A stretch of 64,000 bases of DNA. It comes from an uncultured Coriobacteriaceae bacterium. Lineage in GTDB: Bacteria > Actinomycetota > Coriobacteriia > Coriobacteriales > Coriobacteriaceae. Below the pieces are notes generated by a model. It worked only from the letters and a program-made list of their open reading frames with translations. It was not told the DNA's origin and made no database searches. The stretch covers positions 248,001 through 312,000 of the forward strand of contig CALUOP010000003.1 of the NCBI GenBank assembly GCA_944322305.1, written 5' to 3'. Shown here one piece after another: positions 1,087 to 18,817 of this stretch (its first letter is position 1; every line of letters begins with the position of its first letter). The translations under genes were made by a program, and so were the position numbers.

Positions 1087-4000
1087 TTACTCCTCGCCGT
1101 GGCGCTGACGCCTGCGGATCGCAACGCCGGTGCCCACCAGGGCAGCTGCCGCAACCGCTATGCCGCCGGCAACCATGGGCAGGTAGTCGCCCGTCACCGG
1201 GAGCTGCTCCTGCGGCGCAACCTCGGGCTCCTCGGGAGCCGGGGTTTCGGGCTCAGAAGGCGCCGCCGGTTCAGAGGGCACGCTCGGCTCGGGCTCGACA
1301 GGCTTCACGTACACGTTGGTGAAGCTCGGCAGCACGCCGTTCTCGTACGCAACGGAAGCGCTGGTAGAGCCGTCGCCGTTGTCGACCACGGTCACCACGG
1401 CCGTGAACACGGTGGCGTCGTAGGTAACGCCGTCGTCCTGCACGCCCTCGGTGTCGGGGTCGTCGTCGGTGGGCAGAACCTCGGAGATCGTGTAGGTGTA
1501 GGTGCCCGCCTCAGGGAAGCTCACCGGCTCAAACGCCACCGAGCCGTCCGCTGCGTTCTTGGCGGTCTGCACCACCTTGCCGTCAGCGTCCTTCAACTCG
1601 AAGGTGAACTCGCCCTCAGCCAGCTCGCGACCGTCCAGGATCTTGGCAGCGCCGAAGTCGACGGTGCCCGGACGCACGATATCGTAGCCGTTCTCAAACG
1701 TCACGCTCTCGACCGTCTTGCCAAAGGCGTCGGTAACCGCCCAGCTCACCGCAAGCGTGCCGTCGCCGTTGTCGGTCACCGTGGCAACCGCCACGTACGC
1801 CGTCTGGTCGTAGGTCACGCCGGAAGCCGTGCCAGCCACCTCGGCAATGGTGAACTCGTAGGTGCCGGGCGCGTTGAACACCACGCCCTCGCCCAAGGTC
1901 ACCGAGCCGTCGGCTGCGTTGGTGCCGGTGGTCGTCATGCCCTCGCTCGGCGTCCCGGCAATGCCGGTCAGCGCAAACTGGAACTCGCCCTCGGCCAGAT
2001 CGCGGCCAGAGATGGTCTTGGTGATGGTCACCCAGCCCTTGCCGGACTCGTCGCCCGGCTTGGGGTCGGTGGGCTCGGACGGATCGCTCGGCTGCACGCG
2101 GTAGGTGTTGGTGAAGCTGAACTTAGCGCCCGAAGTCGGGTCGGTGGCAACGCCCAGCGTGCCGTCGCCGTTGTCGGTCACCGTAACGGTGAAGGTGCGG
2201 CTGGCCTGCGGGTCGTTGGTCACGCCCGCCACCTGGCCGGACTCCGTCACCGTGTAGGTGAAGGTCTTGCTGCGCTTGGCGCTCTTTGCCTCAACGGAAG
2301 CCGTGCGGAAGGCAGCCTGGATCAGCGTGGGCTCGCCGGCCTTGGCCCCGGCGGCGCCGACCTCGGCAGCCTCAGCGCCCTCAGCGGTGTCGGCGTCGGC
2401 CTCGGCGGCGTTAGCCTCGGCGCCCTTGGCCTCGTCAGCCACAGCCTCGTCGGCAGCCTCGGCAGTGTCGCCCTCACCCTCGGCGTCGGCAGCATCAGCG
2501 CTGTTCTCGCCCTGGGTCATAAGAGCATCCTCGCCCTCGGCAGCCTCGGTGCCCTTGTCCGCAGCGCCATCAGCCTTGGAAGCGTCCGCCGTCGGGCCCT
2601 GGTCGGTCACCGTATCCCCGGCGTCCTCCGTGGCCTCTCCGCCGAACACATTCTCCATCGTGAACGTAACGTCGCCGAAGTTCACGTTGCCTGCCGCGTC
2701 GTTGGTGACCGTGGTCTTCTCGGGCATCGGAGCGCCCTCGGAACCGGTCAGCGTGAAGGTGTACTTGCCGGCGATGTCGGGTGCGTTGTTGCCAGACTCG
2801 ACCTTGAGCGTCTTGGTGCCGGCCAGGTTGACGGTAGCCTTGCCCTCGTCGCCCTCGCCGTACGCGTTGCGGAAGGTCAGGCCGTTGCCGCCGTCCGGGT
2901 AGGCAACCTTGATGCCCAGCGTGCCGTCGTTGTTGTCGGTCACGGTGACGGTGATCCTGAAGCTGTCGGCAATGGCGGTCACGCCCTCGTCGAAGCTCTT
3001 CGTGTCCTCGGCCACCGTGTAGGTGTAGGTAAAGGTGTCCTTGCCGTCCACGTTGCGGTAGGCGTTCACACCGTTCTCGGCATCGGCCAGCAAGCCGTCC
3101 TTGGTGTAGCTGATCGGCGAGAAGGACACGGTGCCGTTGGCGGCGTTGGCGCCGGTGGCAACCTGCGTGCCGGCAGCGTCGGTCACCGTGAACTTGAACT
3201 CGCCGGCAACTTGGTCGCGGTTGGTCAGCTGCTTGGTGGCGTTGATGCGCACCGAGCCCTGGCCGTCGCCGCCCAGCTCGCCCGTGGCCTGGTACACGTT
3301 GGTGAACGGCACCACGGCCTGCTCGTCAGCGGTGGCCTCGTCGTTGTCGTACACGTAGGTCTTGTCGTAACCGTCAGCGGTCACGTGCGTGGTCACCTTG
3401 ATGCCGCCGTTGCCATCGTCCGCGGTGGTGATGGTCACCGTGTACTCGGTGGCGTCATTGGTGTAGCCAGCCTCGCCGCCCTTGGTCTCCTTCACCGTAT
3501 AGGTGTAGGTGTCGTCGGCGTCGTCCTGCGTGAACGTGGCGTCCGAGAAGATCTCGGCCCAGCTGGTGGCAACCTGCTTGCCGTCCTCGGTAACGTCGAC
3601 GGTGCCCACGTTGGACTTCACGACCTTGGTCATGCCGTCAAAGCCGGCCTTCTTGGCAGAAGCCTCGTCGGCAGCCGTGACGGTGAACTCAAACTGGCCG
3701 GCGTCGATGTTGCGGTTCTCAAGGTTCTTGACAACCCACAGGCCGCCTTCGCCTTCGGCGCCGTAGTCGAGCTCAGTGCCGTAGACGTTGGTGAAGGTGC
3801 CGTTCTCAACCGTGGCGGACGCGGTGTAGCGGCCCTGCTTGTTGTCGGACACGGTAACCGTCACCTTGGCGGTGTGGCCGTCGTAGTCCATGCCAGCGTT
3901 GGTGCCGGGCTGCTCGCGCACTTCATAGGTGTAGGTGCCCGCGGCGGTGTAGGTGATGGTGCCGAACGAGAACCGTGCTTGGTCGTTGCCCTCGGCGTCG

Positions 4001-7000
4001 GTGCCCGTGGGGGCAGAGACGGTCGTAGCGGTCACGGCGTTGCCGTTGGCGTCGGTGGGCATGGGTTGGTTGCGCGGGTCAACGGCCTCGCCCGTGGCAA
4101 GCGTGCCGCCGGTGGGCGTCAGCTCAAAGGTGAACGCGTCGGCGTTGTCGCCCGTAGCCCACTTCTTGCCCGTGAGAACCTTGGTGAGCTGGAACGCGCC
4201 CTCGCCCTCGGTGGGAACGTCGGTAGAGCCATCGGTCTTGTAGGTGTTCACAAACGCGGCCTCAGCAGTCTCGTCGGCCTCGATGGTTACCGTCTTGGTA
4301 GCCTCGTCGGCGGTATAGCCGGGCTCGGGATCCTCGGTCACGGTAACCTTCGCGCCCTCGGGCAGACCCTCGACGGTGAGGGACTCGCCGTGCTTGAGGG
4401 TAACGGTAGCGCCGTTTATAACCGTGGTCTCGGCATCCTTCACCGGGAACTCGCCGGTCAGCGCGTTGCCCGCGGCGTCCTTGAGCTCCAGCGTAAAGGT
4501 GAACTCCTTGTCCGCGTCGATCTCGTTGCCCTGGCCCTCGGTGAGCTTGATCTCCTTGGAGATGGTCAGGCTGCCGGTGCCGGGCTGCTTGTCGCCGTCG
4601 GTGGTGTTGGTCTGGTAGGTGTTGTTGCCCACCGAAACCGTAGCCGTGTTCTTGACCGGGTCCGTAACCGTGGTGGCGTTCTCGTTCACCAGAGCCTTGA
4701 AGGTCACGGTGCCGGTGGCGCCGGGCTGGGCCGGGAAGGTCCAAGTCAGCGTCTGGCCGTCGGCTTTGAAACTGCCGTTCTCGACCGCGGCGGCCGAGCC
4801 GTCCACGTAGGTCAGGCCCTCGGGCAGCGTGTCGGTGATGGTCACGTTCTGCTCGGTGTCCTCGAGGTTGGCCCACTCGATGGTGTAGGTAAGCGTGTCG
4901 CCCACCTGAATGCCGGTGTCGGGCGTGCTGTCCTCAGAGGTCTTCTTGGGGAAGTCCGTGGTGACCTCGTTGGTCTGGTGCGGATCGTTCTCGCCCACCT
5001 GGATGGTGGCAGAGTTCTTGATCGGGTCGTTGTTGACCGCGTCCTCAGTCACCGTGACCTGGAAGGAAACGGTGCCGGTTGCGCCAGCGTCGGCGTCGAT
5101 GGTCCAGGTGATGGTCTTGCCGTCCTCGGACAGCTCGCCGCGATCGGAGATGGAGCCCTCAACCAGCTTGGTACCGGACGGGATGGTGTCAGTGATAACC
5201 ACCTGAGCACCCACGGGAGCGCCGTTCTCGTCCTGGGCGTTGTTGGCCCACGCAATGGTGTACTCCAGCGTGTCACCCACACCGACCATCTTGCCGTTCA
5301 CATCGGTCTTTACGTCATCGTCAACCGTGGCAACGGACTTTTCGTCGGCCGGGGTGTACACGTTGGTGAACGTGGTGCTGCCGGTGGTCTTGTCGTCCAC
5401 TACCTCGGCAACCAGCTGACCCTTCTTGTTGTCGGTGACCTTGACGGTGACCACGCGCTTGTGGGCGTCGTAGGTCATGGTTGCGTCGTTACCCTTAACC
5501 TCGGTGATCTTGAAGCTGTACTCGCCCTCCTCGGTGAAGGTGATGTCGCCGAACGCAGCGGTGTGGTTCTCGGTGCCGCTGGTCACGAGAAGCTCGCTGG
5601 CGTTCTCGGGAAGCGTCACCGCGCCGCGTGCTACCGCAGCGACCGTGGTCTCGTCGTTAGCCTCGAGCGCAAAGGTAAATGCGTCGCCCTCAGCCCAGTC
5701 ACGGCCGGAGATTTCCTTGGTGACCGAGAGGTTCGAGGCACCAGGCAGCACGGCCTTGCCGTTGTTGCTGTAGGTGTTGGTGAAGGTCAGACCGGCAGCC
5801 GGGGCCGTCACGGTAGCGGTAGGCTTCAGCGTACCGTCGCCGTTGTCAGCCACGCTAACCTCGATCACGCGCTGGACGCTGTCGTAGGTCATGCCGCCCA
5901 GTTTGTCCTCGTCAGCCGGAACCTTCTCGTTCACGTAGAAGGTGTAGGTGCCCGCCTGAGTAAAGGTGATGTCACCGAAGTTAGCCTGATGATCAGCCGT
6001 CTCGTTGGTGATGGTGATGCCCTCGGCGTTATCGGGCAGGGTAGCGCCCTCAGGGTTGTTCTCGTCGGCGGTCAGCGTGAAGGTGAAGGAGTCGCCTTCC
6101 TGCCAATCGCGACCGTCGAGCACCTTGGTCACCATGAGGTTGGTCTTGCCGTCCAGCGTGCCGGGCTCGTCGCCACCGCTCTTATAGGTGTTGGTCCAGG
6201 TAGCATCACCCTCAGCCTTGGTAACGGCAGCCTCCAAACCGCCCTTGTTATTGTCGGACACCTCGACCGTGATGGTGCGCACGTGCTCGTCGTAGGTCAT
6301 GCCACCCGTGACACCCACAAAGCCATCGTCGCTGGGCTGCTGCTCGCGGATGGTGAAGGTGTAGGTGCCAGCCTTGGTGAATGTGATGTCGCCGAAGGAG
6401 AAGGGAACCTTGGCACCGTCAGAGTACGCACCCTGGAGAACCACTGCGGTCTCGCCAGGCAGGGTCACTGTGCCGTCTTCAACGGCGGCCTTCGTATCAT
6501 TGTCGCCTGCGGCGAGGATGAAGGTGAAGCTGTCCTTGTCCGTCCAGTCGCGACCCTTGAGGATCTTGGCGCCGGAAAGGTCGGTTGCGCCGTCAAGCGT
6601 AGCCGTGCCCTCGGTGGCATAGCTGTTCTTGAAGGCGATGGCCTTAGCCTCGTCCCAGTCCTTGCCGTCCGCGGACTTCTCGATCTTGGGGTCAACCGTA
6701 CCGTCGGGATTTACCGTGACGGTCACCTTGTACTGAGTGGTGTCGTAGGTGATGCCAGGCTGACCGTCGTTGACCTCGGTGATGAGGTACACGTACTTGC
6801 CGGACTCGGTGTAGGCAATGTTGTTGAGCAGCGTCACCGGAGCCGTCCAGCTGCCATCCTCGTTCTTTTCGGGCGTGCCGTTGAAGTTTGCGGGCAGCGT
6901 GGAACCCATGGGAGCGTCGTTCTGAGCCTCAACCTTGAAGGTGAACTGACCGTCGATCAGCTCGGCTCCCGTCAAGGTCTTGGTGCCGTTGAGGTTCGCA

Positions 7001-10000
7001 AGCGTAGCGCCGCCGAACTTCCAAGTGTTGGTCCAGGTGAGCTGATCAGCGCCGGTGGTAATGTCAGCGGAGAGCTTGCCTTGGCCATCGTCGGCAACCG
7101 TGACGATAATGTCGCGCTGCGCGGTGTCGTACGTCATGCCGTCAGCATCACCCGCCTGCTCGGTGATGTGATAGACGTACTCGCCAGCCTTAGTGAACCT
7201 GATGGTACCGAAGCCGATGGTCGCATCGTTGCCCTCGGTCGGGTTGATGGTGATGTTGCCATCCTCATCAAGCCCGTCGGGCAGCGGCGCGCCGTCGTCG
7301 GCCGTCACGTTGAATGTGAAGCTATCGCCCATCTGGAAGTCACGACCGTCGAGATGCTTCGTACCAGCAAGGTCGAGAGTCGCTTCAGTCTTCTGGGTAT
7401 TGGTAAACGCAGCAGCGTCGGTCACTTTCTTGTCGGCATCGTTAGTGGCCTTGCTGTTGTCGTAGGACACCTGTGCCCACAGCTCATTTGCGTCATGGCC
7501 AGGACCGCCCTCGAACACGGCGACCGTTACAGTGGCAACGTGCTCGTCATACGTCATAGACGCGTCAGCATCGTCGCCCGCCGGCTGCTCGGTGATCTCG
7601 TACACATACGTACCAGCCTGCGAGAACGTCATCTCACCGAACGCGGCAGTGTTGGTAGCGCCGTCGGCTGGAGCGATCACCTCAATGGTGCTATCCGCCG
7701 GCATCGGCGCATTCTTTACGCCCTCGGGCTTTTGGGTGTTCGTGATCGTGAAGCTGTACTTCTCATCCTTGTTCCAGCCACGGCCAGCCAGGGTCTTCTG
7801 AACGGTAATGCCGTCGTTTGCATCGCCGCCGATGATGACCTCGGTGGGCTTATACGTGTTGGTGAAGGTCAGGCTGTCACTCTCTGCCGCGTCAACCTCC
7901 GCAACAAGGTTCCCGTTGGTGTCGTCAGTTACGTTGATCACAACGGTGCGCTCGGGATTGACGTCGTTGGTAACGCCCTCCACGACACCCTCTTCCTTCA
8001 CCGTGAAGGTGTAGGTGCCGGCCTCCTTGAAGGTGATGTTGCCAAAGCTCGCCGTGTGACCCGGCGTGTTGCCCGTGATGGTCAGCTGCGTCGGCAGAGC
8101 CATAATCACAGTCTTGTCGTCGTTAACCGCCTTCTTGGTCGCATCATCCTTGGGAGAAAGCGTAAAGGTCCAGTTGTCCGTGTCAAACCAGGCACGGCCC
8201 TCAAGGTTCTTCGTCACCGTTAGATTGGCTGCGCCATCAAGCGTTGCAAAGTTGGCTCGATACGTGTTGGTGAAGGTGGCTGTGCCGTCAACCTCTGCGA
8301 GCGGGCTGAAGGTATCGCCATCGTCCGTCTTCACCTGATGGATTTCTGAGGTCACCGTCATGGTGCCGTTACCGTTGTCGGTGGCCGTCACAACCACGTT
8401 GTACTCAGCCCGCGAGTAGTTCACGCCAGCAAGGGTATCCTCCTGCACCTCGGTCAGCGTGTAATTGTACGTACCGGGACGGGTGTACGTGATGTTTCCG
8501 AAAGCCACGTTCTCGTGGTTGTCCTTTGTTAGATCAACCGTTGCCACGCCGCCGGTGCGGCCGTCAGGCATGGGCACGTTCTCCGCAGGCATCGTCTGGC
8601 CGTCAACCAGGCTGTCTTTCGCAGTCAACATGGCCTTGAAGGAGTCGGTATCGAGCCACTTGTCGTTCACACGGCCCGTGAACACCTTGGTAACCCTGAT
8701 GGCCTCGTCGCCCGTGGAGTCAAGCGTGCCGGTCGTAGTGTACTTGTTGGTGAAGTCCAGCGTCTGGTCGCCATCCACCTCAACAGAATCACCGTTGATC
8801 ACCTTAACGCTGCGCTTGAGCACGCCGTTCTCGTCGGTCACGGTCACCTTGACCGTGTACTTCGCATCATCCGAGGTCACGCTGTCAACCGTGGACTCCT
8901 GTTCGGAGACGGTCCAGGTGTAGACGCCCTCGCGCTCGTAGGTGATGGTGCCCGTATCGAAGCGGTAGGTGTTACCCGTCTGCGACGAGGGGCTGATGGT
9001 CACAGTATAGTCGAGGCCATTGCCCGCATCGTTGGTCGTGATCGCGGAGAAGTCGTAGCCGTCCGAGGCTTTGACCGAAGGCAGCGGTGCGCCATCCGGC
9101 CATTCGGAGCCATCCGTCTGCGTAGCCGTCATGGACACGCTGAACGTGAAGGTGTCGCCCTGCTGCCAGTTGCGGCCATCGAGCGTCTTGAGGATGTTCT
9201 GATGGCCCTCGATGGTTGTCGGGTTATAGGTGTTGGTGAAGTCGAGTTTGGTCACGTCGACCGGATCGCCCGTGGTGCCCTCGCCGGAGCCGCCGTTGTC
9301 AATCTTGACGGCCGTGGGCTTCGCCACGGAAATCTTGCCGGTGTTGTGATCCTCGGTCACCGTGAACGTCACCGTATAGGCGGTGTTGTCGCGGCTGATG
9401 CCTGCGGGCATGTCACCGGTCTCGAAGATGTTGTACTGGAACGTCTTGGTGAAGACGCCCGGCTGACCCTCGACCTCGGCGGCGCCCACCATGTCGTCGT
9501 GGGTGAACTCGATCCCGCCGAAGTCGTAGATACTGACATCGGTAGCATTGCCCGTGCCGTTGGCCACGGTCATCATGCCGCGGCCCTGGCTGTCCGTAGT
9601 GTTGTCCCAGCCTTTGGGCATGGGGTTGCCCGCGGCCTGCGCGCGCAGGGTGAAGCTGAACTGGCCGGCCTCCAGCGTATAGGTGTTACCCGTGGTGTCG
9701 TTGATGTACTTGTGGCCGCCGAGCAGCTCTTCATCTGCAAAGCCCCAACGCGCGGGCTCGGCTGCATAGACGTTCTCGAAGGTCAAATCGTTCTCGCCGT
9801 CACCCTCGGCAGTAGTTCCCGCCACTGCAGTGGCGTGCAGGCTGCCCCTGCCGTCATCGGTCACCGTCACCGTGATGATGCCGGTGTGACGGTCGTAGGT
9901 CATGCCGTTGGTGCCGTTCGCAGGCAGGTTATTGCCGTTGTGGCTGGTCTCGGTCACGTTGAAGGTGTAGGTGCCCGCCTTGGCGAAGGTGAAGGTGCCG

Positions 10001-13000
10001 TCGAACCAGAAGTCCGCAGAGGCGCCGTCCTTGTGCATGGTCGCCGTCGCGTCGGCGGTATTGAACGCGCCGTCCTTGCCGTTCGTCGGCCGGAAGGTCA
10101 CCGCACCCCAGTTGCCGCCGTCGGCCACTTCACCCCGCTCGAGCGTGAAGCCGAAGGTCTCTCCGTCGATGCCGTTGCGGCCCTCGATAGTCTTGGTGCC
10201 CTTGAAATCGGTAGAGCCGGTCAGCGTCGTGGAGTCCGCCTCGTACTTGTTGGTGAACTCAGCCGCCTGGGCGCCCTTCTCATAGGTCACCGCAGCGTCA
10301 AGCTGGCCGTCGAAGTTATCGTCGGTCACGGTGACGGTCACGATGGCCACATGCTCGTCGTAGGTCCAGCCAGCGCGATCCTCATCTGTGCCTTCGTTGA
10401 ACTCGGCCGCGCCAACCTCAGTGATCTTGAACTGGTACTCGCCCGTGGCATTGAACTTGATGCCGCCGAACGTAGCCGTCTTGGGCTGCGTCTGCGTCAC
10501 GCCGCCCGTAATGGAAGTCAGCACGTCGAAGTCCTCGTCAACAGCCTCGACGTTCTTCCACTTGTCATTATCCGGATCAACCGGCTCGATCTTGAACTGG
10601 AAGTTAGCCGTGGAATCGGCGCCGGTCACGCTCTTCTGCACCGTGATCTGCTGCTGCGCGCCGTCGCCGCCCACGATAACGGAGTCAGCCTTGTAAGAGT
10701 TGGTAATCTCAACCGGGCTGCCATCCACGCGGTCGATGTAGAGGTTGCCGTCGTACTGGCCATCCTGGTTGCGGTCGGTCACGTACACGGTCACGTCGTG
10801 CGTGTCGGTAACGCCGTCGCCGTTAGCGTCGTCGAACGTCCAACCGGCGTCCGCGGTGGGCTGGTTCTCCTGCACCGTGAAGGTGTAGGTGCCCGGCTCG
10901 GTGAACGTCAGCTTGCCGAACGTCTTGGTCTGGGACTCGCCGTCCTTGATGGTGCCGTCGGTGCTCACCGTGAGCTGGTTGTTCCGATCCAGACCCTCGA
11001 TGTTGCCGATGTTGTTGCCGGTCGCCGTCAGCGCGAAGGTGTAGTCGGTCGCGGAATCCGCGCCGGTCACGTGCTTGGTCACCTGGATCTGGTGCGAGGC
11101 ATCCTCACCCACAGTAGCGGGCGTCGGGTTGTAGTCGTTCACGAATCCGAAGGTCGGAGCGGCGTAGTCCTGAGCATCGGAGTTGGCGTGGTCAACCACG
11201 ACTTTGCTCATCTCGGTGCCGTCCGAAGCCTTGATCTTGGTCACGGTGGTCACGGTGTGCATGGTGCCGTTGCCGTTGTCCACCACCTCGATGTCCACGC
11301 GGTACTGGCTCTGGTCGTAGGCGACGTTCGCCAGTTTGTCCCCGTCAGCGGGAACAGTCTCGGACACGAGGTAGCTGAACGTCTTGTCTGCATCGTCCTG
11401 GTCGAAGCTCACATTCTGGAGCTTGGCCATGATGGCGGTGCCGTTCTCGGCCGCCGCGGTGTTCTGGAAGCTCTTGTCGGCATCCGCCAGCTTGGCGTTC
11501 GCCGCATCGGCATCCACCGTGCCGGAGTCGGTGCCCTCGATCGTGAAGCTGAACTCGTTGTTCGCCATCGGGCGGTCGAGCATCTGCTTCGTCACGTTGA
11601 TGCCGCCTTCGCCCTCGGCGCCGTAGTTCATGGACGCCTCGTAGGTGTTGGCGAACAGCGCCTTGTCCGTGGTGTCAGCGTGCTTGTCGTTGCTGTAGGT
11701 CACCTCGGCCTTGAGCGTGCCATCATGGTTGTCGGTCACCACGACCGTCACCGTGGCGATGTTGGTGTCATACGTCATGCCGGAACCATTGGCGGTCTCG
11801 GTGCCCCGCTCGTCAGCGACCTCGTTCACGGTAAACGTGTAGGTGCCCACCTGAGAGAACGTCAGGTTGCTGAACTTGAAGTAGGCAGAGCCGCTCTGCA
11901 TACTGTCTTTGCCGACCGTCACCGTCTCGGGCTGGTCGAGCACGGACACGAAGCCGCCGCCGTCTGCTGCCGGGCCGCCCGTCTGGGTCAGCTGGAAGTA
12001 GAACGTCTCGCCGTCCTTCATATCGCGGCCGTCGAGGGTCTTGGTTCCCTGGATCGGGGCCACGCCGTTCTCGCCGAGCGTCACGTCGTCCGGGTTGTAG
12101 GTGTTGGTGAACACGAGGTCCTTAGGAGCGATATCCGGCGTCGCAACGATGTGCGTGCCGTCGGCATCGGTGACCTCCGTCACCGCCACCTTGACGGTGT
12201 ACTCCTTCGTGTCGTACGTCATGCCGTCCTCGGTCTGCCCGTCCTTGTTCTGGGCGAGCTCGGTCACCTTGTACTCGTAGGTGCGGCCGATATCGCCGCC
12301 GTCAAAGGCGATGGTGCCGAAGGTGAAGTCGTGCCCCGTGTTGTACACGGTCTTGGAATGGGTTGCTTCGTCGGAGCCCGCGGGCAGCGGAGTCTCGTCC
12401 ACGCCGTAGGTGTATGGGCTGGTCTGCGGGTTGTCCGTATCGTAGCCGCCGAGCGCCTCAATCTTGAAGGTGAACTTGTCGGCATTGATGGGGTTGCCGC
12501 CCGTGGTGTCGGTGTAGCTCTTGGTGCCGTCGATGTTGGTGGTGCCGCCGTCAGCATCGTACTTGTTGACGAAGGTCGCCGTGTCGCCCTGAACCTCAAC
12601 GGCAGGGCTGTTCTCCACACCGTCATCGTTGGTGCGCTGCTCGATGGCAACGTTGAAAACCTCAAGTTTGCCCGTGCCGTTGTCCGTCACCGTGACGACC
12701 ACGCGGTAGATTGCACCGGAGTAGTCGATGCCCGCAATGGGATCGGTGTCGTTGTCCTCGGTGATGTTGTAGCGGTACTCACCCGGCGCCGTGAAGGTGA
12801 TGTCGCCGAAGGAGGCCGTGTAATCCGCGGTCTGGCTGTTCACCGTAATGGTGGTGTCGGCAGGTTCGGGCGTGGTGATGCCGGAGCCGGCCGTGTTGCC
12901 CAGACCGTCGATCTCGAACGTGAACTCGTCGGTGTCACGCCAGTCACGGTTCTGCAGGTCCTTCTTGACCTTGAGCGTCGTGCTGGTGCTCAGGTTCACG

Positions 13001-15615
13001 TCCGCAGCCTTGTAGGTGTTCGTGAAGGTGGTGGAAACGTTGTCGCCGCCAACGATCGTGCCTGAGACGGTGCCGTCGGACGGGTTGTCGTTGCCCTCAG
13101 CCGTGGAGGCGTCCTCCGTGGTGAAGCCGTTCTGGTTGGCGCCCTGCTCCTCCACGGTGAACTGCGTGCCAGCCGGCAGGCCCTCGATCTTCACGGACTG
13201 ACCGCCGTTGATGGTGATGGTGCCGCCGTTTGCCACGGTGCCGGCCTGGTCGGACGCGCCGTCAATGTAGTAAGGATACTCGCCCGTGAGCGCCGTGCCC
13301 TCTTCGTCGGTCAGGCTGACCTTGAAGGTGAAGCTGCTCTTGTCCTGCTTGGTCTGGTCGGAGGCGTTGCCCCAGTCGACCGCCTTCTTGATCTCGAGCG
13401 AACCGGGCATGTCAAACGACAGCTTGCCGTTGTTGCCCAGGTACTGGTTCACGCTCGTGCCCGCCCATGCCGGGTTGAGCACGTTGGTCGCGGTGCCCGT
13501 TGCGTTTTTGGTCTTCCCAGACGTCAGCGTCGCGGGACGCTCGGAACGCGGGGTGCCCGCCGGGATGTAGTAGGTCCCGTTGTAGCCACCCGTGCTCTCC
13601 ATGGCCTCCCACTCGGCAGTACCGCGGTTGACCGCCACGCCGGCGGTGCGCTCCTCAGCGCCGCCACCCTGGGTCTGCACCCAGTAAGTGTCCTTCCAGT
13701 AGAGCGTGTTAGCGCCGCGCGAGTTCCGCTCGTTCGCCTCGGTCGTGCAGTTCTCGTCAATGTAGAGCGGGGTGTCCTGCGTGTAGTAGTAGAACTTGTT
13801 GCCGGCGTTGGGCTCGAAGCTCGCGGTGGCGGAACCGTCGGCCGCGCCCTTGACGAAGCTGTTGGTGTAGAAGTCGACGGTCTTGCCGTCCTCGGACTTC
13901 TGGGAGCCCATGATGGCGGCGTACACGTCGCTCGTCGGATCGTTGAGCGCCTGCTTAGCCTCCTCCTTCAGGCTCACGCCGTAGAAGAGGCGGACGGGGT
14001 AGGCCTCCGCCACGGTCATGGTGTGGTTGTCGGTGTCCACGTCGTAGTTGCGCAGCGGCAGCAGCGACGCGGGAAGCTGCACCGTCACCTTGTCGCCCAC
14101 CGCGGGGTCGTTGCTGCGCTCGACGGTCACCACGAGGTCGGCGAGGTTGGCGGCGCCGTACACCGCGTTGCCCTCGACCTGACCGCTGAAGTGGTAGGTG
14201 TCGGTCTTGCCGTCGGTAGTCTTGCTGTCGCTCGTGTAGATGGTGTCGCCATAGGCAAGCTGCATCTTGTCGTTGCCCATACCCGTGCCCGTCACCTGCA
14301 TGTAGGCGCCGAGCTGGTCGGTGAAGGTGAGGGTGCCGGGATCGGTGTTGCCCTCTTCGGATTCATCGACAATCGGGGAGCCGGAGCCCGATTCCTGAAG
14401 TGCGGAGTCAAGAATCTCCTGGAACACATTGTTCAGATCATCGGCTGTGGAAGGCGTCTTGTAGTAGCCACGGTTGCTTCCAGATCCAAGGTTGACGTTA
14501 TACTCGTCGTCCTCCCACCACCAGTTTCCCTCTTCGAAGGTCGCCGTTGCATTCGGATAATTGCTCGACACGGCATTCATGTACTTATTAAAGTCGCTGC
14601 TCGTGTCGTTTGGATTGGCTCCATTGAGCAGACCAATGGAGTAGACAAGTGCATTGTTTTCTTTGAGGCTGTGGGCGGAGTTAATCGCGTCGGTTGCAAT
14701 CTCCGGATCAAAATTGTCCGTTCCCGGGCCAGCAGGCACACCATCCGTGAAGAAGATCACAACCTTCTGCGCATTATCCCTTGCATTCGTGAGAACAGAC
14801 CCTGCCTCGTCAAATCCCTCGTTGGGATAGGTGTTTCCACTAGCTCGCAGCCTATCGACAACATTGTGGAGACGATCGGCATTTCCATCATTGACCGCCG
14901 TCAGCCCAATCTCGGTACTGGCGTTGTCGGAGAAGGTCACAATGGACAAACGATGCTGAAGAGCCTCATCTTCGATGCCCCTGTTCTCTTCAACAGTCGC
15001 ATCGATAAAGTTGTTGGCCGCAGCCTTGAGAGCGTTAAGACGACTCTGCCGGCCCCCTCCTCCGATGTTCTGATTCATCGAAGTTGACTCATCGAGCACC
15101 AGAACAATGTCAAGCGGCTTGCTTGTCTGAACCATCTCTTTCAGGTTCGACGTAGAGGAAAGCGCCGAAAGGCCAACCAAGAAGTCGGAGTCGCCCTTCT
15201 GGATGGTCTGGCCATTGAGGTCGGCGCTGCCAGAGAACGTGTAGGTATCGTTGAACACGCTCTTGTCGGTCCAGATGCGGCCGACGTTCTGGGTGGACGG
15301 CTGCCCATCGGGACGGGTGTACTTCGTCCAGTCGTTCGTGGTGCCGGGGTCGACCTTCGTGTCGGCGCCCTCAACGGCATACGTCTCCACGGCAGAATCG
15401 CCGTCGTTGCCGACGAACGCGCTTGCTATTGAGTTGCCTAAGTTTGAAAAGAATCCACCGATGTCCTCAAGCGGACCGGCGTACGCCCGTGGCACTGCCA
15501 CGGTAAGCGAAATCGCCAGCGCAACAAGTGCGGTTAACGCTGCTGCCCGGGAAACACGTCCCCGGCGCGGGGTAAATCTACGAGATACCCCCCCCCATGC
15601 ACAATTTTTCGGCAT
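1087..15615 (-). CDS. giant LPXTG-anchored VWA/FctA-repeat surface protein (about 4,842 aa)
   Basis: This is predicted to be exported, sortase-anchored and fibrillar. In order it has a signal peptide ending near residue 46 (RAYA), a VWA domain from about 167 with an intact MIDAS (D175-x-S177-x-S179), and a DUF5979-like module (about 735-870). Then come about 17 FctA/Spy0128-like repeats (870-3425), two DUF11 modules (3425-3670), another DUF5979-like module (to about 3790) and about six more FctA-like repeats. The C-terminus has a Pro/Glu spacer, LPVTG at about 4805-4809, a hydrophobic segment and RRRQRHGEE. Repeats typically contain a lysine early, TYTFTVxE in the middle and TFTNTY at the end, the Lys-Glu-Asn layout of self-formed isopeptide bonds. 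An acidic Ala/Asp/Glu-rich stretch (about 4329-4440) interrupts one repeat. The start is uncertain. ATG at 15615 is in frame but has a weak ribosome site. ATG at 15652 has AGGAAAGGG six bases upstream but is out of frame with G9. Confidence 0.9.
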   Translation of the reverse strand: MPKNCAWGGVSRRFTPRRGRVSRAAALTALVALAISLTVAVPRAYAGPLEDIGGFFSNLGNSIASAFVGNDGDSAVETYAVEGADTKVDPGTTNDWTKYTRPDGQPSTQNVGRIWTDKSVFNDTYTFSGSADLNGQTIQKGDSDFLVGLSALSSTSNLKEMVQTSKPLDIVLVLDESTSMNQNIGGGGRQSRLNALKAAANNFIDATVEENRGIEDEALQHRLSIVTFSDNASTEIGLTAVNDGNADRLHNVVDRLRASGNTYPNEGFDEAGSVLTNARDNAQKVVIFFTDGVPAGPGTDNFDPEIATDAINSAHSLKENNALVYSIGLLNGANPNDTSSDFNKYMNAVSSNYPNATATFEEGNWWWEDDEYNVNLGSGSNRGYYKTPSTADDLNNVFQEILDSALQESGSGSPIVDESEEGNTDPGTLTFTDQLGAYMQVTGTGMGNDKMQLAYGDTIYTSDSKTTDGKTDTYHFSGQVEGNAVYGAANLADLVVTVERSNDPAVGDKVTVQLPASLLPLRNYDVDTDNHTMTVAEAYPVRLFYGVSLKEEAKQALNDPTSDVYAAIMGSQKSEDGKTVDFYTNSFVKGAADGSATASFEPNAGNKFYYYTQDTPLYIDENCTTEANERNSRGANTLYWKDTYWVQTQGGGAEERTAGVAVNRGTAEWEAMESTGGYNGTYYIPAGTPRSERPATLTSGKTKNATGTATNVLNPAWAGTSVNQYLGNNGKLSFDMPGSLEIKKAVDWGNASDQTKQDKSSFTFKVSLTDEEGTALTGEYPYYIDGASDQAGTVANGGTITINGGQSVKIEGLPAGTQFTVEEQGANQNGFTTEDASTAEGNDNPSDGTVSGTIVGGDNVSTTFTNTYKAADVNLSTSTTLKVKKDLQNRDWRDTDEFTFEIDGLGNTAGSGITTPEPADTTITVNSQTADYTASFGDITFTAPGEYRYNITEDNDTDPIAGIDYSGAIYRVVVTVTDNGTGKLEVFNVAIEQRTNDDGVENSPAVEVQGDTATFVNKYDADGGTTNIDGTKSYTDTTGGNPINADKFTFKIEALGGYDTDNPQTSPYTYGVDETPLPAGSDEATHSKTVYNTGHDFTFGTIAFDGGDIGRTYEYKVTELAQNKDGQTEDGMTYDTKEYTVKVAVTEVTDADGTHIVATPDIAPKDLVFTNTYNPDDVTLGENGVAPIQGTKTLDGRDMKDGETFYFQLTQTGGPAADGGGFVSVLDQPETVTVGKDSMQSGSAYFKFSNLTFSQVGTYTFTVNEVADERGTETANGSGMTYDTNIATVTVVVTDNHDGTLKAEVTYSNDKHADTTDKALFANTYEASMNYGAEGEGGINVTKQMLDRPMANNEFSFTIEGTDSGTVDADAANAKLADADKSFQNTAAAENGTAIMAKLQNVSFDQDDADKTFSYLVSETVPADGDKLANVAYDQSQYRVDIEVVDNGNGTMHTVTTVTKIKASDGTEMSKVVVDHANSDAQDYAAPTFGFVNDYNPTPATVGEDASHQIQVTKHVTGADSATDYTFALTATGNNIGNIEGLDRNNQLTVSTDGTIKDGESQTKTFGKLTFTEPGTYTFTVQENQPTADAGWTFDDANGDGVTDTHDVTVYVTDRNQDGQYDGNLYIDRVDGSPVEITNSYKADSVIVGGDGAQQQITVQKSVTGADSTANFQFKIEPVDPDNDKWKNVEAVDEDFDVLTSITGGVTQTQPKTATFGGIKFNATGEYQFKITEVGAAEFNEGTDEDRAGWTYDEHVAIVTVTVTDDNFDGQLDAAVTYEKGAQAAEFTNKYEADSTTLTGSTDFKGTKTIEGRNGIDGETFGFTLERGEVADGGNWGAVTFRPTNGKDGAFNTADATATMHKDGASADFWFDGTFTFAKAGTYTFNVTETSHNGNNLPANGTNGMTYDRHTGIITVTVTDDGRGSLHATAVAGTTAEGDGENDLTFENVYAAEPARWGFADEELLGGHKYINDTTGNTYTLEAGQFSFTLRAQAAGNPMPKGWDNTTDSQGRGMMTVANGTGNATDVSIYDFGGIEFTHDDMVGAAEVEGQPGVFTKTFQYNIFETGDMPAGISRDNTAYTVTFTVTEDHNTGKISVAKPTAVKIDNGGSGEGTTGDPVDVTKLDFTNTYNPTTIEGHQNILKTLDGRNWQQGDTFTFSVSMTATQTDGSEWPDGAPLPSVKASDGYDFSAITTNDAGNGLDYTVTISPSSQTGNTYRFDTGTITYEREGVYTWTVSEQESTVDSVTSDDAKYTVKVTVTDENGVLKRSVKVINGDSVEVDGDQTLDFTNKYTTTGTLDSTGDEAIRVTKVFTGRVNDKWLDTDSFKAMLTAKDSLVDGQTMPAENVPMPDGRTGGVATVDLTKDNHENVAFGNITYTRPGTYNYTLTEVQEDTLAGVNYSRAEYNVVVTATDNGNGTMTVTSEIHQVKTDDGDTFSPLAEVDGTATFTNTYRANFATLDGAANLTVTKNLEGRAWFDTDNWTFTLSPKDDATKKAVNDDKTVIMALPTQLTITGNTPGHTASFGNITFKEAGTYTFTVKEEGVVEGVTNDVNPERTVVINVTDDTNGNLVAEVDAAESDSLTFTNTYKPTEVIIGGDANDGITVQKTLAGRGWNKDEKYSFTITNTQKPEGVKNAPMPADSTIEVIAPADGATNTAAFGEMTFSQAGTYVYEITEQPAGDDADASMTYDEHVATVTVAVFEGGPGHDANELWAQVSYDNSKATNDADKKVTDAAAFTNTQKTEATLDLAGTKHLDGRDFQMGDSFTFNVTADDGAPLPDGLDEDGNITINPTEGNDATIGFGTIRFTKAGEYVYHITEQAGDADGMTYDTAQRDIIVTVADDGQGKLSADITTGADQLTWTNTWKFGGATLANLNGTKTLTGAELIDGQFTFKVEAQNDAPMGSTLPANFNGTPEKNEDGSWTAPVTLLNNIAYTESGKYVYLITEVNDGQPGITYDTTQYKVTVTVNPDGTVDPKIEKSADGKDWDEAKAIAFKNSYATEGTATLDGATDLSGAKILKGRDWTDKDSFTFILAAGDNDTKAAVEDGTVTLPGETAVVLQGAYSDGAKVPFSFGDITFTKAGTYTFTIREQQPSDDGFVGVTGGMTYDEHVRTITVEVSDNNKGGLEAAVTKAEGDATWTNTYKSGGDEPGTLDGKTNLMVTKVLDGRDWQEGDSFTFTLTADENNPEGATLPDNAEGITITNETADHQANFGDITFTQAGTYTFYVNEKVPADEDKLGGMTYDSVQRVIEVSVADNGDGTLKPTATVTAPAAGLTFTNTYSNNGKAVLPGASNLSVTKEISGRDWAEGDAFTFALEANDETTVAAVARGAVTLPENASELLVTSGTENHTAAFGDITFTEEGEYSFKITEVKGNDATMTYDAHKRVVTVKVTDNKKGQLVAEVVDDKTTGSTTFTNVYTPADEKSVATVDDDVKTDVNGKMVGVGDTLEYTIAWANNAQDENGAPVGAQVVITDTIPSGTKLVEGSISDRGELSEDGKTITWTIDADAGATGTVSFQVTVTEDAVNNDPIKNSATIQVGENDPHQTNEVTTDFPKKTSEDSTPDTGIQVGDTLTYTIEWANLEDTEQNVTITDTLPEGLTYVDGSAAAVENGSFKADGQTLTWTFPAQPGATGTVTFKALVNENATTVTDPVKNTATVSVGNNTYQTNTTDGDKQPGTGSLTISKEIKLTEGQGNEIDADKEFTFTLELKDAAGNALTGEFPVKDAETTVINGATVTLKHGESLTVEGLPEGAKVTVTEDPEPGYTADEATKTVTIEADETAEAAFVNTYKTDGSTDVPTEGEGAFQLTKVLTGKKWATGDNADAFTFELTPTGGTLATGEAVDPRNQPMPTDANGNAVTATTVSAPTGTDAEGNDQARFSFGTITYTAAGTYTYEVREQPGTNAGMDYDGHTAKVTVTVSDNKQGRYTASATVENGTFTNVYGTELDYGAEGEGGLWVVKNLENRNIDAGQFEFTVTAADEASAKKAGFDGMTKVVKSNVGTVDVTEDGKQVATSWAEIFSDATFTQDDADDTYTYTVKETKGGEAGYTNDATEYTVTITTADDGNGGIKVTTHVTADGYDKTYVYDNDEATADEQAVVPFTNVYQATGELGGDGQGSVRINATKQLTNRDQVAGEFKFTVTDAAGTQVATGANAANGTVSFSPISYTKDGLLADAENGVNAYRNVDGKDTFTYTYTVAEDTKSFDEGVTAIADSFRITVTVTDNNDGTLGIKVAYPDGGNGLTFRNAYGEGDEGKATVNLAGTKTLKVESGNNAPDIAGKYTFTLTGSEGAPMPEKTTVTNDAAGNVNFGDVTFTMENVFGGEATEDAGDTVTDQGPTADASKADGAADKGTEAAEGEDALMTQGENSADAADAEGEGDTAEAADEAVADEAKGAEANAAEADADTAEGAEAAEVGAAGAKAGEPTLIQAAFRTASVEAKSAKRSKTFTYTVTESGQVAGVTNDPQASRTFTVTVTDNGDGTLGVATDPTSGAKFSFTNTYRVQPSDPSEPTDPKPGDESGKGWVTITKTISGRDLAEGEFQFALTGIAGTPSEGMTTTGTNAADGSVTLGEGVVFNAPGTYEFTIAEVAGTASGVTYDQTAYVAVATVTDNGDGTLAVSWAVTDAFGKTVESVTFENGYDIVRPGTVDFGAAKILDGRELAEGEFTFELKDADGKVVQTAKNAADGSVAFEPVSFPEAGTYTYTISEVLPTDDDPDTEGVQDDGVTYDATVFTAVVTVVDNGDGSTSASVAYENGVLPSFTNVYVKPVEPEPSVPSEPAAPSEPETPAPEEPEVAPQEQLPVTGDYLPMVAGGIAVAAAALVGTGVAIRRRQRHGEE
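15588..15596 (-). repeat. poly-G tract (9 G) near the start of the giant adhesin gene
   Basis: There are nine C on the plus strand. From the strongly preceded ATG at 15652 the present tract gives a 24-codon peptide ending in TAG just after the tract. Eight or eleven G would join that ATG to the full-length frame. From ATG at 15615 the present length is already in frame. Confidence 0.85.
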
Positions 15616-15772: not shown

Positions 15773-16583
15773 CACCATGAGAGTTACAGGCCATCTTAAA
15801 GCTTTTCAGCGCTCTTGTCTGCAAAAACCCGGGCAACGGTGTGTTAATTTACGCCGCGATCATACTGATTTCGAGCCGGTCTGAAACCTGTCCGAACGGT
15901 TTCCCAACGGTCAATGTGCTGCTGGCAGCGGTCGTCGCCAGCGGTAACAGCGCGGGGCAGCAGGGTAGTGATTGGGGTTATGTCGGTTTTGTGTATCTTG
16001 TGCGGCAGAAGCGAAGCTGAAACGCCGTAAGAGCGCCTCGCGCCGGACAGCGCCGCTTGCGTGCGTTTTTCTCGGCAGACACATGGCTTACAGCAATCCG
16101 CGCGCCCTTCTCGACGCGTTTCTACGACGCTCGTTCCTCACAGTAGTCGAGCATGCCACGAACCTCTCTCGGCAGTCAGATACGCCGCACATTTCTCTCG
16201 GCAGATGCGGCGCGCATCACCCTTTACAGCCGATTTCTGCACGTTCTTCTCGACAGATCCAAACCGCTGGGGCAACGCACATCGCACTTGGCACGTTCTT
16301 CTCGGCTTTCGCAAAAGCTGGCGTAGCTGATAGGGCGGTTTGGCAAGCTCTTCTCGGCAAATGCAAACCAGCGCCCAGCTTCGCAGGCACCACTTTTGTA
16401 CCTGCCGAGTAACTTGCGCGCAAACGCCCTCAAAAGGGTCATGTAGCTCGTACCTGCCGAGTAAAATCCGCGGGCGCAACGAGCGGGTAGCCTCTAGCAC
16501 AGCAAAGCGTGCCCAAAAACGCAATGGCCACAGAGCTGCCGGGACAATCTGAAGACTGCCAAGACAATCCGCTTCGCATGCAG
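15773..16583. other. intergenic region without a supportable gene
   Basis: The only open frames are short and have no family I recognise. The first part (to about 16050) holds a small hairpin (GAAACC...GGTTTC near 15882-15905) and GC-rich unstructured sequence. From about 16060 on it is filled by the left repeat array described separately. Confidence 0.5.
16060..16480 (-). repeat. left degenerate repeat array beside the ATPase gene
   Basis: Read on the minus strand, the array begins with two TACTCGGCAGGTAC motifs flanking a small hairpin (GACCCTTTTGAGGGC). Units of the type CTG(C/T)CGAGAAGAAC(G/T)TGCCA follow at spacings of about 33-58 bp. Examples in plus-strand form are near 16243, 16289, 16347, 16189 and 16156. 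The order and spacing match the array at 17805-18350, so the two are diverged copies in the same orientation. Confidence 0.7.
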
Positions 16584-17687
16584 CTACGCCCAATCCCTCC
16601 GCAGGTAATCGGCAAGATGCGGCACCGCAAACGAAACGCGCCCGCGGCCGGCAGCCTCGATAACTCCAGCATCGATGAGCCGGCGGCGGTACTTTTGCGC
16701 ATAGTCCTTGGTCACGCCCATGCGATCCGCAACGTCCGCTATCGCGCTCGGCCCCTCATCGAGCGCCATGGCCCCCAAGAACTCAACGTCTTTCTCCGAA
16801 AGCGCCGCCAGCGTTGTGCCGCACACATCGTTCTCAAAGTCCAGACGCGCCGCGGTGAACGCGCTTTGCAATGACTCTTCTGTCAGCTCCTCGCCATTCG
16901 GTGCGCGCAGGGCAATGTTGTGCCCTATGAGCTGCAGCAAATACGGTGAGCCCTGCGTCTCTTCCGCCGCGCGCCGCCTGGCCTCGGGCGTTATGGCAAC
17001 GCCCAGCTGCCTGAACGCGCGCTCATAAAACGCGTCGACGTCACTAAACGCGAGCGGCGGCAGGTTGACCTTGCGCGCGCGATTCAGAAACGTCAGAACC
17101 TTGTCGTTCAGCGTTGCAGAAACCGCGCCCGGCAAACCGGCGAGGACCATAGCCACGTTCAGGCGCTCACCCACCAGCTCTTGATACACGGTCACGATCT
17201 GTCTGATGTCTGGCGAGTTGGCCTGCAGCTCGTCAATGAGGATGAGCAAGCCGTGGCCGCGATCCGTCAGCGCGCGAGCGAGCTGCGTCAGCTTGTAGGC
17301 GAAACTTTTGCCCTGTGCTTCGTGCGTGAACTCCAGACCCACGGTAAAGCCCATGGCGCCGATACTTGCGCCGCTTACATGCGTTGCCGGCGTTTTCACA
17401 TACTGCGCGCCCGATTCCTGGATTTTCTCGATAATGCGCTCGAGCATTCCCTCGGCCGTTACCGTTGGTGTGGCAACAGCGAAGCCCAACGATGACGCAC
17501 GGTCGGCCAGCTCCCACAGAAGCACGGTTTTGCCGCTGCCGCGTTGGCCCAGCATGACCACCGCGCGATCGCGGTTGCCTGGCTCGGTTTGAAAACCATC
17601 AATGAACTGCTGGATTATGCGCTCGCGCCCCACGAGGTACGAGGGACGGTTGCCAAACGCCGGGGAGAATATAGTGTCGTGAGTCAC
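16584..17687 (-). CDS. AAA/STAND-like ATPase with C-terminal helix-turn-helix (about 367 aa)
   Basis: The protein has a Walker A motif (GQRGSGKT, about residue 48), a Walker B strand (LLILIDE), and a C-terminal portion (ATRx-like VADRMGVTKDYAQKYRRRLIDAGVI) that reads like a winged helix. Overall it resembles the archaeal/Orc-like ATPase proteins that are often annotated only as 'ATP-binding protein' in Actinobacteria. Substrate and role are unknown. I chose GTG at 17687 because GGAGG lies five to six bases upstream; a GTG six bases earlier overlaps that site. The gene stands alone, with no partner gene on either side, and is enclosed by two same-orientation repeat arrays. Its leader is a 40-base purine tract. 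It could be a cellular regulator or a remnant of a mobile element. Confidence 0.82.
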   Translation of the reverse strand: MTHDTIFSPAFGNRPSYLVGRERIIQQFIDGFQTEPGNRDRAVVMLGQRGSGKTVLLWELADRASSLGFAVATPTVTAEGMLERIIEKIQESGAQYVKTPATHVSGASIGAMGFTVGLEFTHEAQGKSFAYKLTQLARALTDRGHGLLILIDELQANSPDIRQIVTVYQELVGERLNVAMVLAGLPGAVSATLNDKVLTFLNRARKVNLPPLAFSDVDAFYERAFRQLGVAITPEARRRAAEETQGSPYLLQLIGHNIALRAPNGEELTEESLQSAFTAARLDFENDVCGTTLAALSEKDVEFLGAMALDEGPSAIADVADRMGVTKDYAQKYRRRLIDAGVIEAAGRGRVSFAVPHLADYLRRDWA

Positions 17688-17701
17688 GGGCACCTCCGTT
17701 G

Positions 17702-17741
17702 TTTTCCTTTCTTTCCTCTTTTTTCCTTTTTTTCCTTTTCT
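17702..17741 (-). promoter_or_regulatory. 40-base purine tract in the ATPase leader
   Basis: Plus-strand positions 17702-17741 are pyrimidines only (CTTT/CCTTTT runs), so the leader on the coding strand is repeated AAAGGAAA. It gives several overlapping Shine-Dalgarno-like blocks and contains A/T runs that could vary in length. The true ribosome site GGAGG lies just downstream. Confidence 0.6.
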
Positions 17742-17804
17742 ATGCTGACGTGGGATTTTCTTTGATGGCGTGAGCGTTGGTTTTGGCTGGCAGGACCCGG
17801 GAAC

Positions 17805-18350
17805 GCCAGGCGCTGTCTCGGCAGACGAGGTCGCGCGCTTTTCTCGAGGAGAATGGCTGCGCGTTCCTCACGGGGATGACCGCGCGCTCCTTCCCGGGGG
17901 CGGCCGCGCGCTCCTTCCCAAGGGCGGCCGCGCGCCCTTCTTGGCAAGCGCAGCGTAGATAACCTTTACCGCTCGGGTTCTGCGCATTTTTCTTGGCAAG
18001 CGCAGTGTAGACTACCTTAAGCGTCCGAGCCCTGCGCACTTCTCTCGGCAGGTACGTGATGTCGCGCATTTCTCTCAGCAGATACGGCGTAGGTGACCCT
18101 AAAAGCCCTGATCTGGCGCGTTCTTCTCGACAGGTGCGGCGGACGTCATTGTGGCACGGGGAGTCTGGCACGTTCTTCTCGACAGAAACAAAACGCGCCT
18201 GGTTACCAAGCATGTTTTGGCAAGTTCTTCTCGGCAGATACACATGAACGCGGAAGAGCTCACGCACTCCGCTTGTACCTGTCGAGTAGAGTGCGCACAA
18301 ACGCCCTCAAAAGGGTCAGGTAGCTTGCGCCTGCCGAGTAAAAAGCGCAC
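17805..18350 (-). repeat. right degenerate repeat array beside the ATPase gene
   Basis: On the minus strand the same head occurs: TTTTACTCGGCAGGC, a GACCCTTTTGAGGGC hairpin and CTACTCGACAGG (about 18275-18345). Units CTGCCGAGAAGAACTTGCCA, CTGTCGAGAAGAACGTGCCA and CTGTCGAGAAGAACGCGCCA follow near 18220, 18165 and 18117, with weaker units down to about 17811. The spacings (about 29, 55, 55, 48, 54, 30) closely parallel the left array. A GC-rich tandem (GCGCGCTCCTTCCC, near 17885-17940) sits at its distal end. Confidence 0.7.
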
Positions 18351-18563: not shown

Positions 18564-18591
18564 GTAGGCGTGAGAGGCTTAGCCGTGTGTC

Positions 18592-18621
18592 GCGCTAACG
18601 CTAAGTTGTTAGCGTTAGCGC
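18592..18621. other. perfect palindrome of TTAGCGTTA half-sites
   Basis: The arms GCGCTAACGCTAA (18592-18604) and TTAGCGTTAGCGC (18609-18621) are perfect, with a GTTG loop, and TTTT follows on the plus strand. Within the next 90 bases the same words recur. AACTTCTAACG (18630-18640) is the inverse of CGTTAGAAGTT (18663-18673), CTAAGTTA follows at 18641-18648, and AACTTAGCGTTA occurs at 18696-18707. This could be an operator array or a terminator. No regulator gene is adjacent. Confidence 0.6.
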
Positions 18622-18817
18622 TTTTCAAAAACTTCTAACGCTAAGTTACGGCCTTAAACTATCGTTAGAAGTTCAACCGGCGCTCTAACGTCAACAACTT
18701 AGCGTTAAAGGCACGCACGCGCCAGCCAAAAGAGCGAGCGCAACTTTCCAAACCAGCCAACCACCAAACCTCGCACGTGCGATGCTGGGCATCGGGCGCG
18801 AAGCCACCCCACACACA

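What the first reader, a model, noticed from the sequence alone, without database searches (positions are those of the whole stretch)
16060..18350. ATPase gene enclosed by two same-orientation arrays of an undescribed degenerate repeat
Both sides of the AAA/STAND-type ATPase gene (16584-17687) carry arrays with a common head (two TACTCGGCAGG-type motifs around a GACCCTTTTGAGGGC hairpin) followed by five or more CTG(C/T)CGAGAAGAAC(G/T)TGCC units. Spacings are strikingly parallel: about 29-34, 50-55, 55-58, 46-48, 54, 30-33. The units are too degenerate and too near 50-bp periodic for CRISPR. This could be a mobile unit with long direct repeats, a regulatory array, or small RNA genes linked to the ATPase.
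Basis: partly seen in the sequence, partly recalled or inferred. Interest (0 to 1): 0.78.

Follow-up and report, generated by a model that had tools for sequence, protein, structure and literature searches.

The report
Genome-wide helically phased DNA site arrays
The two repeat arrays around this ATPase gene are two of at least sixteen similar clusters of a 24-base DNA site between genes of this gut-type bacterium, spaced by whole turns of the double helix as if an unknown protein binds them side by side, and the ATPase between them is probably a bystander.

Summary
The arrays are real. Window 16061-16471 and 17930-18348 hold 7 and 9 copies of a 24-bp site, TTGCAYCTGYCGAGAARAACGYGC. They are not ATPase-specific: the genome has at least 16 such arrays (about 146 sites), all intergenic, many beside housekeeping genes. 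More than 30 other ATPase-homologue loci have none.

Site spacings are 30, 40, 52, 62 and 74 bp, quantised at about 10.6 bp, the DNA helical repeat. Typical arrays have two arms of opposite orientation meeting at a fixed 53-bp turn, and a second conserved module in some spacers.

Best reading: binding platforms for an unidentified multimerising DNA-binding protein. The bipartite core CGAGAANNNC is also over-represented genome-wide in this genus and in a genus of another family, on both strands. A second array family (23-bp unit, 30-bp period, same core) exists here and in one sister species, partly at orthologous sites. A few literature searches found no description. Function is inferred; a DNA-uptake-signal role and a mobile-repeat origin remain open.

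The parts
16061..16084 (-). array 1, outlying unit site
   Evidence: 29.3 bits, leave-window-out profile
16187..16366 (-). array 1, tandem arm: four sites at exact 52-bp spacing (16187, 16239, 16291, 16343)
16211..16238 (-). array 1, second-module spacer AGAAATCGGCTGTAAAGGGTGATGCGCG
   Evidence: mixture model score 22.8 bits
16367..16395 (.). array 1, turn: 29-bp gap between oppositely oriented sites (53 bp start to start)
   Evidence: 53 bp in 12 of 16 turns genome-wide
16396..16471 (+). array 1, head: site 16396-16419 (variant ...GAGTAACTTGCGC), spacer, site 16448-16471
   Evidence: 27.3 and 31.5 bits
   Evidence: 22.5 bits; pairing not conserved
16584..17693 (-). AAA_16/ATPase_2 P-loop ATPase with C-terminal winged-helix-like region, 369 aa; judged incidental to the arrays
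   Evidence: Pfam AAA_16 7.5e-11; homologues lack arrays
17930..18243 (-). array 2, tandem arm: seven sites (17930, 17982, 18034, 18064, 18116, 18168, 18220), spacings 52,52,30,52,52,52
   Evidence: 15.7 to 33.1 bits
17954..17981 (-). array 2, second-module spacer AGAACCCGAGCGGTAAAGGTTATCTACG
   Evidence: 16.5 bits
18244..18272 (.). array 2, turn: 29-bp gap
18273..18348 (+). array 2, head: sites 18273-18296 and 18325-18348
   Evidence: 31.4 and 30.0 bits
18297..18324 (+). array 2, second-module spacer ACAAACGCCCTCAAAAGGGTCAGGTAGC
   Evidence: 23.4 bits
34474..34497 (+). lone site TCGCACCTGGCGAGAAAAGCGGGC outside any array
   Evidence: 23.0 bits

Best explanation
Each array is a platform of clustered binding sites for a sequence-specific DNA-binding protein, not yet identified. 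It reads the bipartite core CGAGAANNNC plus family-specific flanks. Sites sit whole helical turns apart, so bound molecules lie on one face of the DNA and can contact each other, giving a nucleoprotein filament or loop with a fixed turn where orientation flips, and a second factor or a bend at the conserved AGAAA..AAAA..TCATG spacer. The arrays lie between genes without regard to promoters, including between convergent genes, so their role is most likely chromosome-level (anchoring, domain or insulator sites) rather than control of one gene. SHOWN: sites, spacing quantisation, orientation grammar, intergenic location, remnants at syntenic loci in a sister species. INFERRED: protein binding, multimerisation, chromosome-level role.
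For: Genome-wide: 116 pattern hits versus 0 for the reversed-pattern control; about 146 profile hits. Sixteen arrays; spacing classes 30/32, 40/41, 50-52, 60-63, 74, 115, 123, 126; best period in an 8-14 bp scan is 10.6 bp (R=0.84, n=36, one per array per class; R=0.76, n=20 without the 52-bp class). Turn spacing 53 in 12 of 16 turns, 64 in two. All arrays intergenic: 8 tandem, 6 convergent, 1 divergent, 1 undetermined at a contig end. Spacers largely unrelated in sequence while units stay conserved. Second module in 19 of 53 spacers above 15 bits; shuffled maximum 145 against 482 observed. Orthologous thyA-locus array in G003 keeps two aligned sites, their spacing changed from 74 to 83 bp, about one turn. 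A second family with the same core and a 30-bp period, in two species, partly at orthologous places. No pairing covariation in unit or module.
Against: No binding protein was identified. Arrays arose partly by duplication (the two window arrays; C2:335k and C9:0.3k share spacers), so spacings are not fully independent. The 24-bp family is intact in one species only; the closest relative keeps remnants and two congeners have none, which is odd for an essential chromosome function.
Confidence: 0.5

Rival explanations
1. Uptake or self-recognition signal: CGAGAANNNC is a DNA-uptake-sequence-like word spread by preferential uptake of DNA carrying it, and arrays are intergenic places where such words have piled up.
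For: Core over-represented, 1.46/kb versus 0.30/kb for the reversed word in G000, with a drop-off at one-base neighbours at several positions; the same in sister species and in genus g18 of another family, much weaker in Collinsella-like and Eggerthellaceae loci. In coding and intergenic DNA, on both strands equally. The word varies by lineage (GGGCGAGAA here; GGCGAGAAGRAC in g18), like dialects. ComEC present.
Against: ComEC is equally present in genomes without the word. Array units are 23-24 bp, intergenic and geometrically ordered, unlike known uptake sequences. Codon bias contributes to the coding counts. Samples are only 40-340 kb per genome.
Confidence: 0.2
2. Mobile intergenic repeat (REP/BIME- or MITE-like): arrays are ends or bodies of a non-coding element moved by a transposase that binds the sites.
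For: Multi-copy, intergenic, inverted arms; some arrays share spacers; gains and losses between G000 and G003. Y1_Tnp (RAYT-like) genes are present in G000 and G003, which have arrays, and absent from G001 and G002, which lack them.
Against: The Y1_Tnp genes of G000 and G003 are not flanked by array sites, and Collinsella-like genomes have such genes without the sites. Spacers diverged while units stayed conserved, unlike dead copies. No clean empty site or target duplication was found.
Confidence: 0.18
3. ATPase-linked unit: the arrays belong to the ATPase as a mobile unit or autoregulatory sites.
For: Two arrays flank the gene; G003 lacks both the ATPase and intact 24-bp arrays.
Against: At least 14 arrays without the gene; no sites at 34 homologue loci, including one 69% identical (G004, L060), whose genome has no excess of sites.
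Confidence: 0.04
4. RNA genes or structured transcripts.
For: Oppositely oriented units could form long hairpins in a read-through transcript.
Against: No Rfam match; no covariation in unit or module; helical quantisation has no obvious meaning for RNA.
Confidence: 0.03
5. Neutral tandem repeats grown by slippage or unequal exchange.
For: Some neighbouring spacers are related; tandem growth would copy a 52-bp or 30-bp step.
Against: Most adjacent spacers are unrelated while units are conserved; different step classes all fall near whole turns.
Confidence: 0.05

Closest known systems
REP/BIME and BOX intergenic repeats (from general knowledge)
   Same: dispersed, intergenic, modular, many copies, inverted pairs
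   Different: no covarying hairpin in the unit; no flanking RAYT gene; sites are quantised by the helical turn
DNA uptake sequences of Neisseriaceae and Pasteurellaceae (e.g. PMC3630211, PMC2346458)
   Same: over-represented short word on both strands, lineage 'dialects' (core CGAGAANNNC)
   Different: array units are long, intergenic and ordered; no uptake specificity tested; not known in this phylum to my knowledge
Iteron or centromere-like site arrays (parC, tubC, plasmid iterons; general knowledge)
   Same: tandem sites on one helical face, probable multimeric complex
   Different: at least 16 chromosomal copies beside unrelated genes, with opposed arms
CRISPR arrays
   Same: repeat/spacer appearance
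   Different: degenerate repeats, both orientations in one array, variable spacing

Membership tests
CRISPR array | near-identical repeats in one orientation with regular spacing | tested here: not met
   degenerate, two orientations per array, 30-126 bp steps
REP/BIME (RAYT-linked) | unit is an imperfect palindrome able to form a hairpin | tested here: not met
   pairing of the unit ends no better than shuffles
REP/BIME (RAYT-linked) | RAYT gene flanked by the repeat | tested here: not met
   no unit sites within the fetched 2-3 kb flanks of the Y1_Tnp genes of G000 and G003
REP/BIME (RAYT-linked) | dispersed in extragenic DNA in many copies | tested here: met
   16 arrays, all intergenic
DNA uptake sequence | short word far above expectation on both strands | tested here: met
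   for the core only:
DNA uptake sequence | preferential uptake of DNA carrying it | not testable with these tools
   needs transformation assays
Chi or KOPS | strong strand skew | tested here: not met
   GGCGAGAANNNC 41 versus 46 over 280 kb
Structured RNA family (Rfam) | match to a curated family or covarying pairs | tested here: not met
ATPase-associated element | array accompanies the ATPase gene | tested here: not met
Helically phased protein-binding array | site spacings cluster at multiples of about 10.5 bp | tested here: met
   best period 10.6, R=0.84
Helically phased protein-binding array | a protein binds the sites | not testable with these tools
   no cognate protein identified

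The most novel reading that the evidence does not exclude
A previously undescribed chromosome-wide system in Coriobacteriales: one core word, CGAGAANNNC, over-represented across the genome and also built into lineage-specific, helically phased intergenic arrays (24-bp unit/52-bp and 23-bp unit/30-bp families here, a 41-bp form in another family). It would be read by an unknown multimerising protein that organises the chromosome or marks self DNA for uptake; to my knowledge it would be the first such signal in this phylum.
Probability: 0.4. Interest if true: 0.88.

Novelty: new variant of a known kind. Interest (0 to 1): 0.7.

Why it matters
If the arrays are what they look like, this group of gut bacteria carries tens of large nucleoprotein assembly sites between its genes that I could not find described, together with an over-represented word shared between two families. 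That makes a concrete question testable: which protein reads CGAGAANNNC, and does it shape the chromosome or choose which DNA is taken up? It also warns that neighbours of such arrays (here an ATPase) should not be read as functional partners.

Tried and rejected
Rfam over 15.5-19.0 kb: nothing near a gathering score. Viral contigs, phages, plasmids: no match to the unit or to array 2. ATPase as partner: rejected. Head hairpin as a conserved RNA structure: rejected. Unit as a hairpin: rejected. RAYT/REP system: flanking test failed, though the presence pattern within the genus is suggestive. ComEC as a discriminator for the uptake idea: present everywhere, uninformative. Chi/KOPS: rejected by strand symmetry. 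Promoter control of neighbours: not supported, since arrays also lie between convergent genes. Literature searches for uptake sequences in Actinobacteria, repeats in Coriobacteria and phased arrays gave nothing matching. ATPase versus PDB and PADLOC: no informative match.

Full report
OBSERVATION. The two arrays exist as described and in the same orientation. With a profile trained only on arrays elsewhere in the genome, 16 sites above 15 bits lie in window 16061-16471 and 17930-18348; one other site above 11 bits lies in the 64 kb (34474). The unit is 24 bp, TTGCAYCTGYCGAGAARAACGYGC. The two heads are 77-78% identical (E 7.7e-24), so the arrays are paralogous.

NOT ATPASE-SPECIFIC. The own genome has 116 matches to a 22-bp pattern of the unit, against none for the reversed control, and 146 profile hits. 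They form at least 16 arrays of 5 to 12 sites at polA, leuS, groES, glmM, efp, recN, thyA, purD and other loci (gene names from my reading of the translations). All lie between genes: 8 tandem, 6 convergent, 1 divergent, 1 undetermined. The ATPase (AAA_16, 7.5e-11) has homologues in 19 of 40 genomes searched, this one included, and in five named records. None of the 34 fetched homologue loci has a site above 15 bits.

GEOMETRY. Same-orientation spacings fall in classes 30/32, 40/41, 50-52, 60-63, 74, 115, 123 and 126 bp (with one 55). A period scan from 8 to 14 bp peaks at 10.6 bp (R=0.84, n=36, one value per array per class). Without the dominant 52-bp class it still peaks at 10.6 (R=0.76, n=20). 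The turn between arms is 53 bp in 12 cases and 64 bp in two. Arrays share ancestry, so these values are not fully independent, but different classes separated by about one helical turn are hard to explain unless proteins on one DNA face matter. Spacer sequences are mostly unrelated while units are conserved.

SECOND MODULE. A mixture model finds a conserved spacer, aGAAAnngnccnanaAggnTcAtG, in 19 of 53 spacers above 15 bits, usually one or two per array; the shuffled maximum is 145 against 482 observed. Its four-pair stem pairs no better than shuffled columns (52.6% versus 51.2%). The unit ends show no covariation either.

RELATIVES. Pattern and profile searches put intact 24-bp arrays only in this species. 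G003 has a few scattered sites; G001 and G002 are at background. Several of the G003 sites lie at loci syntenic with own arrays: thyA, purD, and the C7:46k array. At thyA two sites align while their spacing changed from 74 to 83 bp, about one turn. The purD locus of G003 has a single site and no ATPase. In genus g18, in another family of the order, a 41-bp form occurs (L153, L154).

A SECOND ARRAY FAMILY AND A DISPERSED CORE. The same genome holds a second family, unit GGGCGARAANNNCRYTSATACGA at 30-bp spacing: 220 hits here, 134 in G003, background in G001 and G002. Arms face inward around a centre, often with an overlapping inverted pair 15 bp apart. At least four lie at orthologous places in G000 and G003. 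Both families contain CGAGAANNNC. That word is over-represented outside arrays of the first family: 1.46/kb against 0.30/kb for its reverse in 341 kb of G000, similarly in G001-G003 and g18, but 0.47 against 0.30 in Collinsella-like loci and 0.67 against 0.25 in a small set of Eggerthellaceae and other named loci. It is strand-symmetric. Part of the coding signal follows codon bias, since hits concentrate in certain frames, but intergenic DNA shows it too.

EXPLANATION. I favour arrays of binding sites for an unidentified multimerising DNA-binding protein with a chromosome-level role. Whole-turn spacing and an ordered grammar point to protein assembly; location without regard to promoters points away from single-gene control. 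An uptake-signal reading fits the dispersed core; a mobile-repeat reading fits the dispersal and shared spacers. A RAYT-like gene is present in G000 and G003 and absent from G001 and G002, but it is not flanked by the units. No step beyond sequence is shown here.

LIMITS. Gene calls are from a simple hexamer model. The genome was read in stretches around hits and in sampled stretches, not whole. Names are not given for the genomes; membership in Coriobacteriaceae is inferred from the named homologue loci.

Noticed in passing
L259-L269 (G000), L270-L278 (G003), L209:15410-15851, L214:7878-8358 and 15133-15555: Second array family, 23-bp unit at 30-bp period, arms facing inward around a centre; at least four at orthologous loci in two species.
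   Followed up: partly
sampled stretches L201-L254: Word CGAGAANNNC over-represented genome-wide in this genus and in genus g18 of another family, strand-symmetric, in coding and intergenic DNA.
   Followed up: partly
L153:5411-5538, L154:4719-4852: 41-bp-period array of a related unit (GCGCCTGGCGAGAAGAACCTGC) at similar-looking loci in two g18 genomes.
   Followed up: partly
G001:C155:9788-9844; several places in G174, G181, G170, G184: Nearly the same 57-bp element, two GGCGAGAAGAAC copies around ATTCAGT-N5-ACTGAAT, in genomes of two families.
   Followed up: no
window 18590-18712: Inverted TAACGCTAAGTT repeats downstream of purD; a similar one at the syntenic G003 locus L138:2903-2942.
   Followed up: no
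L204:6800-7120: At the place where G003 has a 30-bp-period array (L273), G000 has two long unrelated hairpins.
   Followed up: no
G000:C8:111320-111380 and G000:C9:1-570: One contig ends and another begins inside array sequence, so arrays probably break the assembly.
   Followed up: no
window 1087-15615: Single 4842-aa ORF of a repetitive surface-protein type with a C-terminal LPVTG motif, on the same strand as the ATPase.
   Followed up: no
G000:C4:265091-265420, G003:C1:68235-68564: Single Y1_Tnp (RAYT-like) gene in the two array-bearing species, none in G001 or G002.
   Followed up: partly
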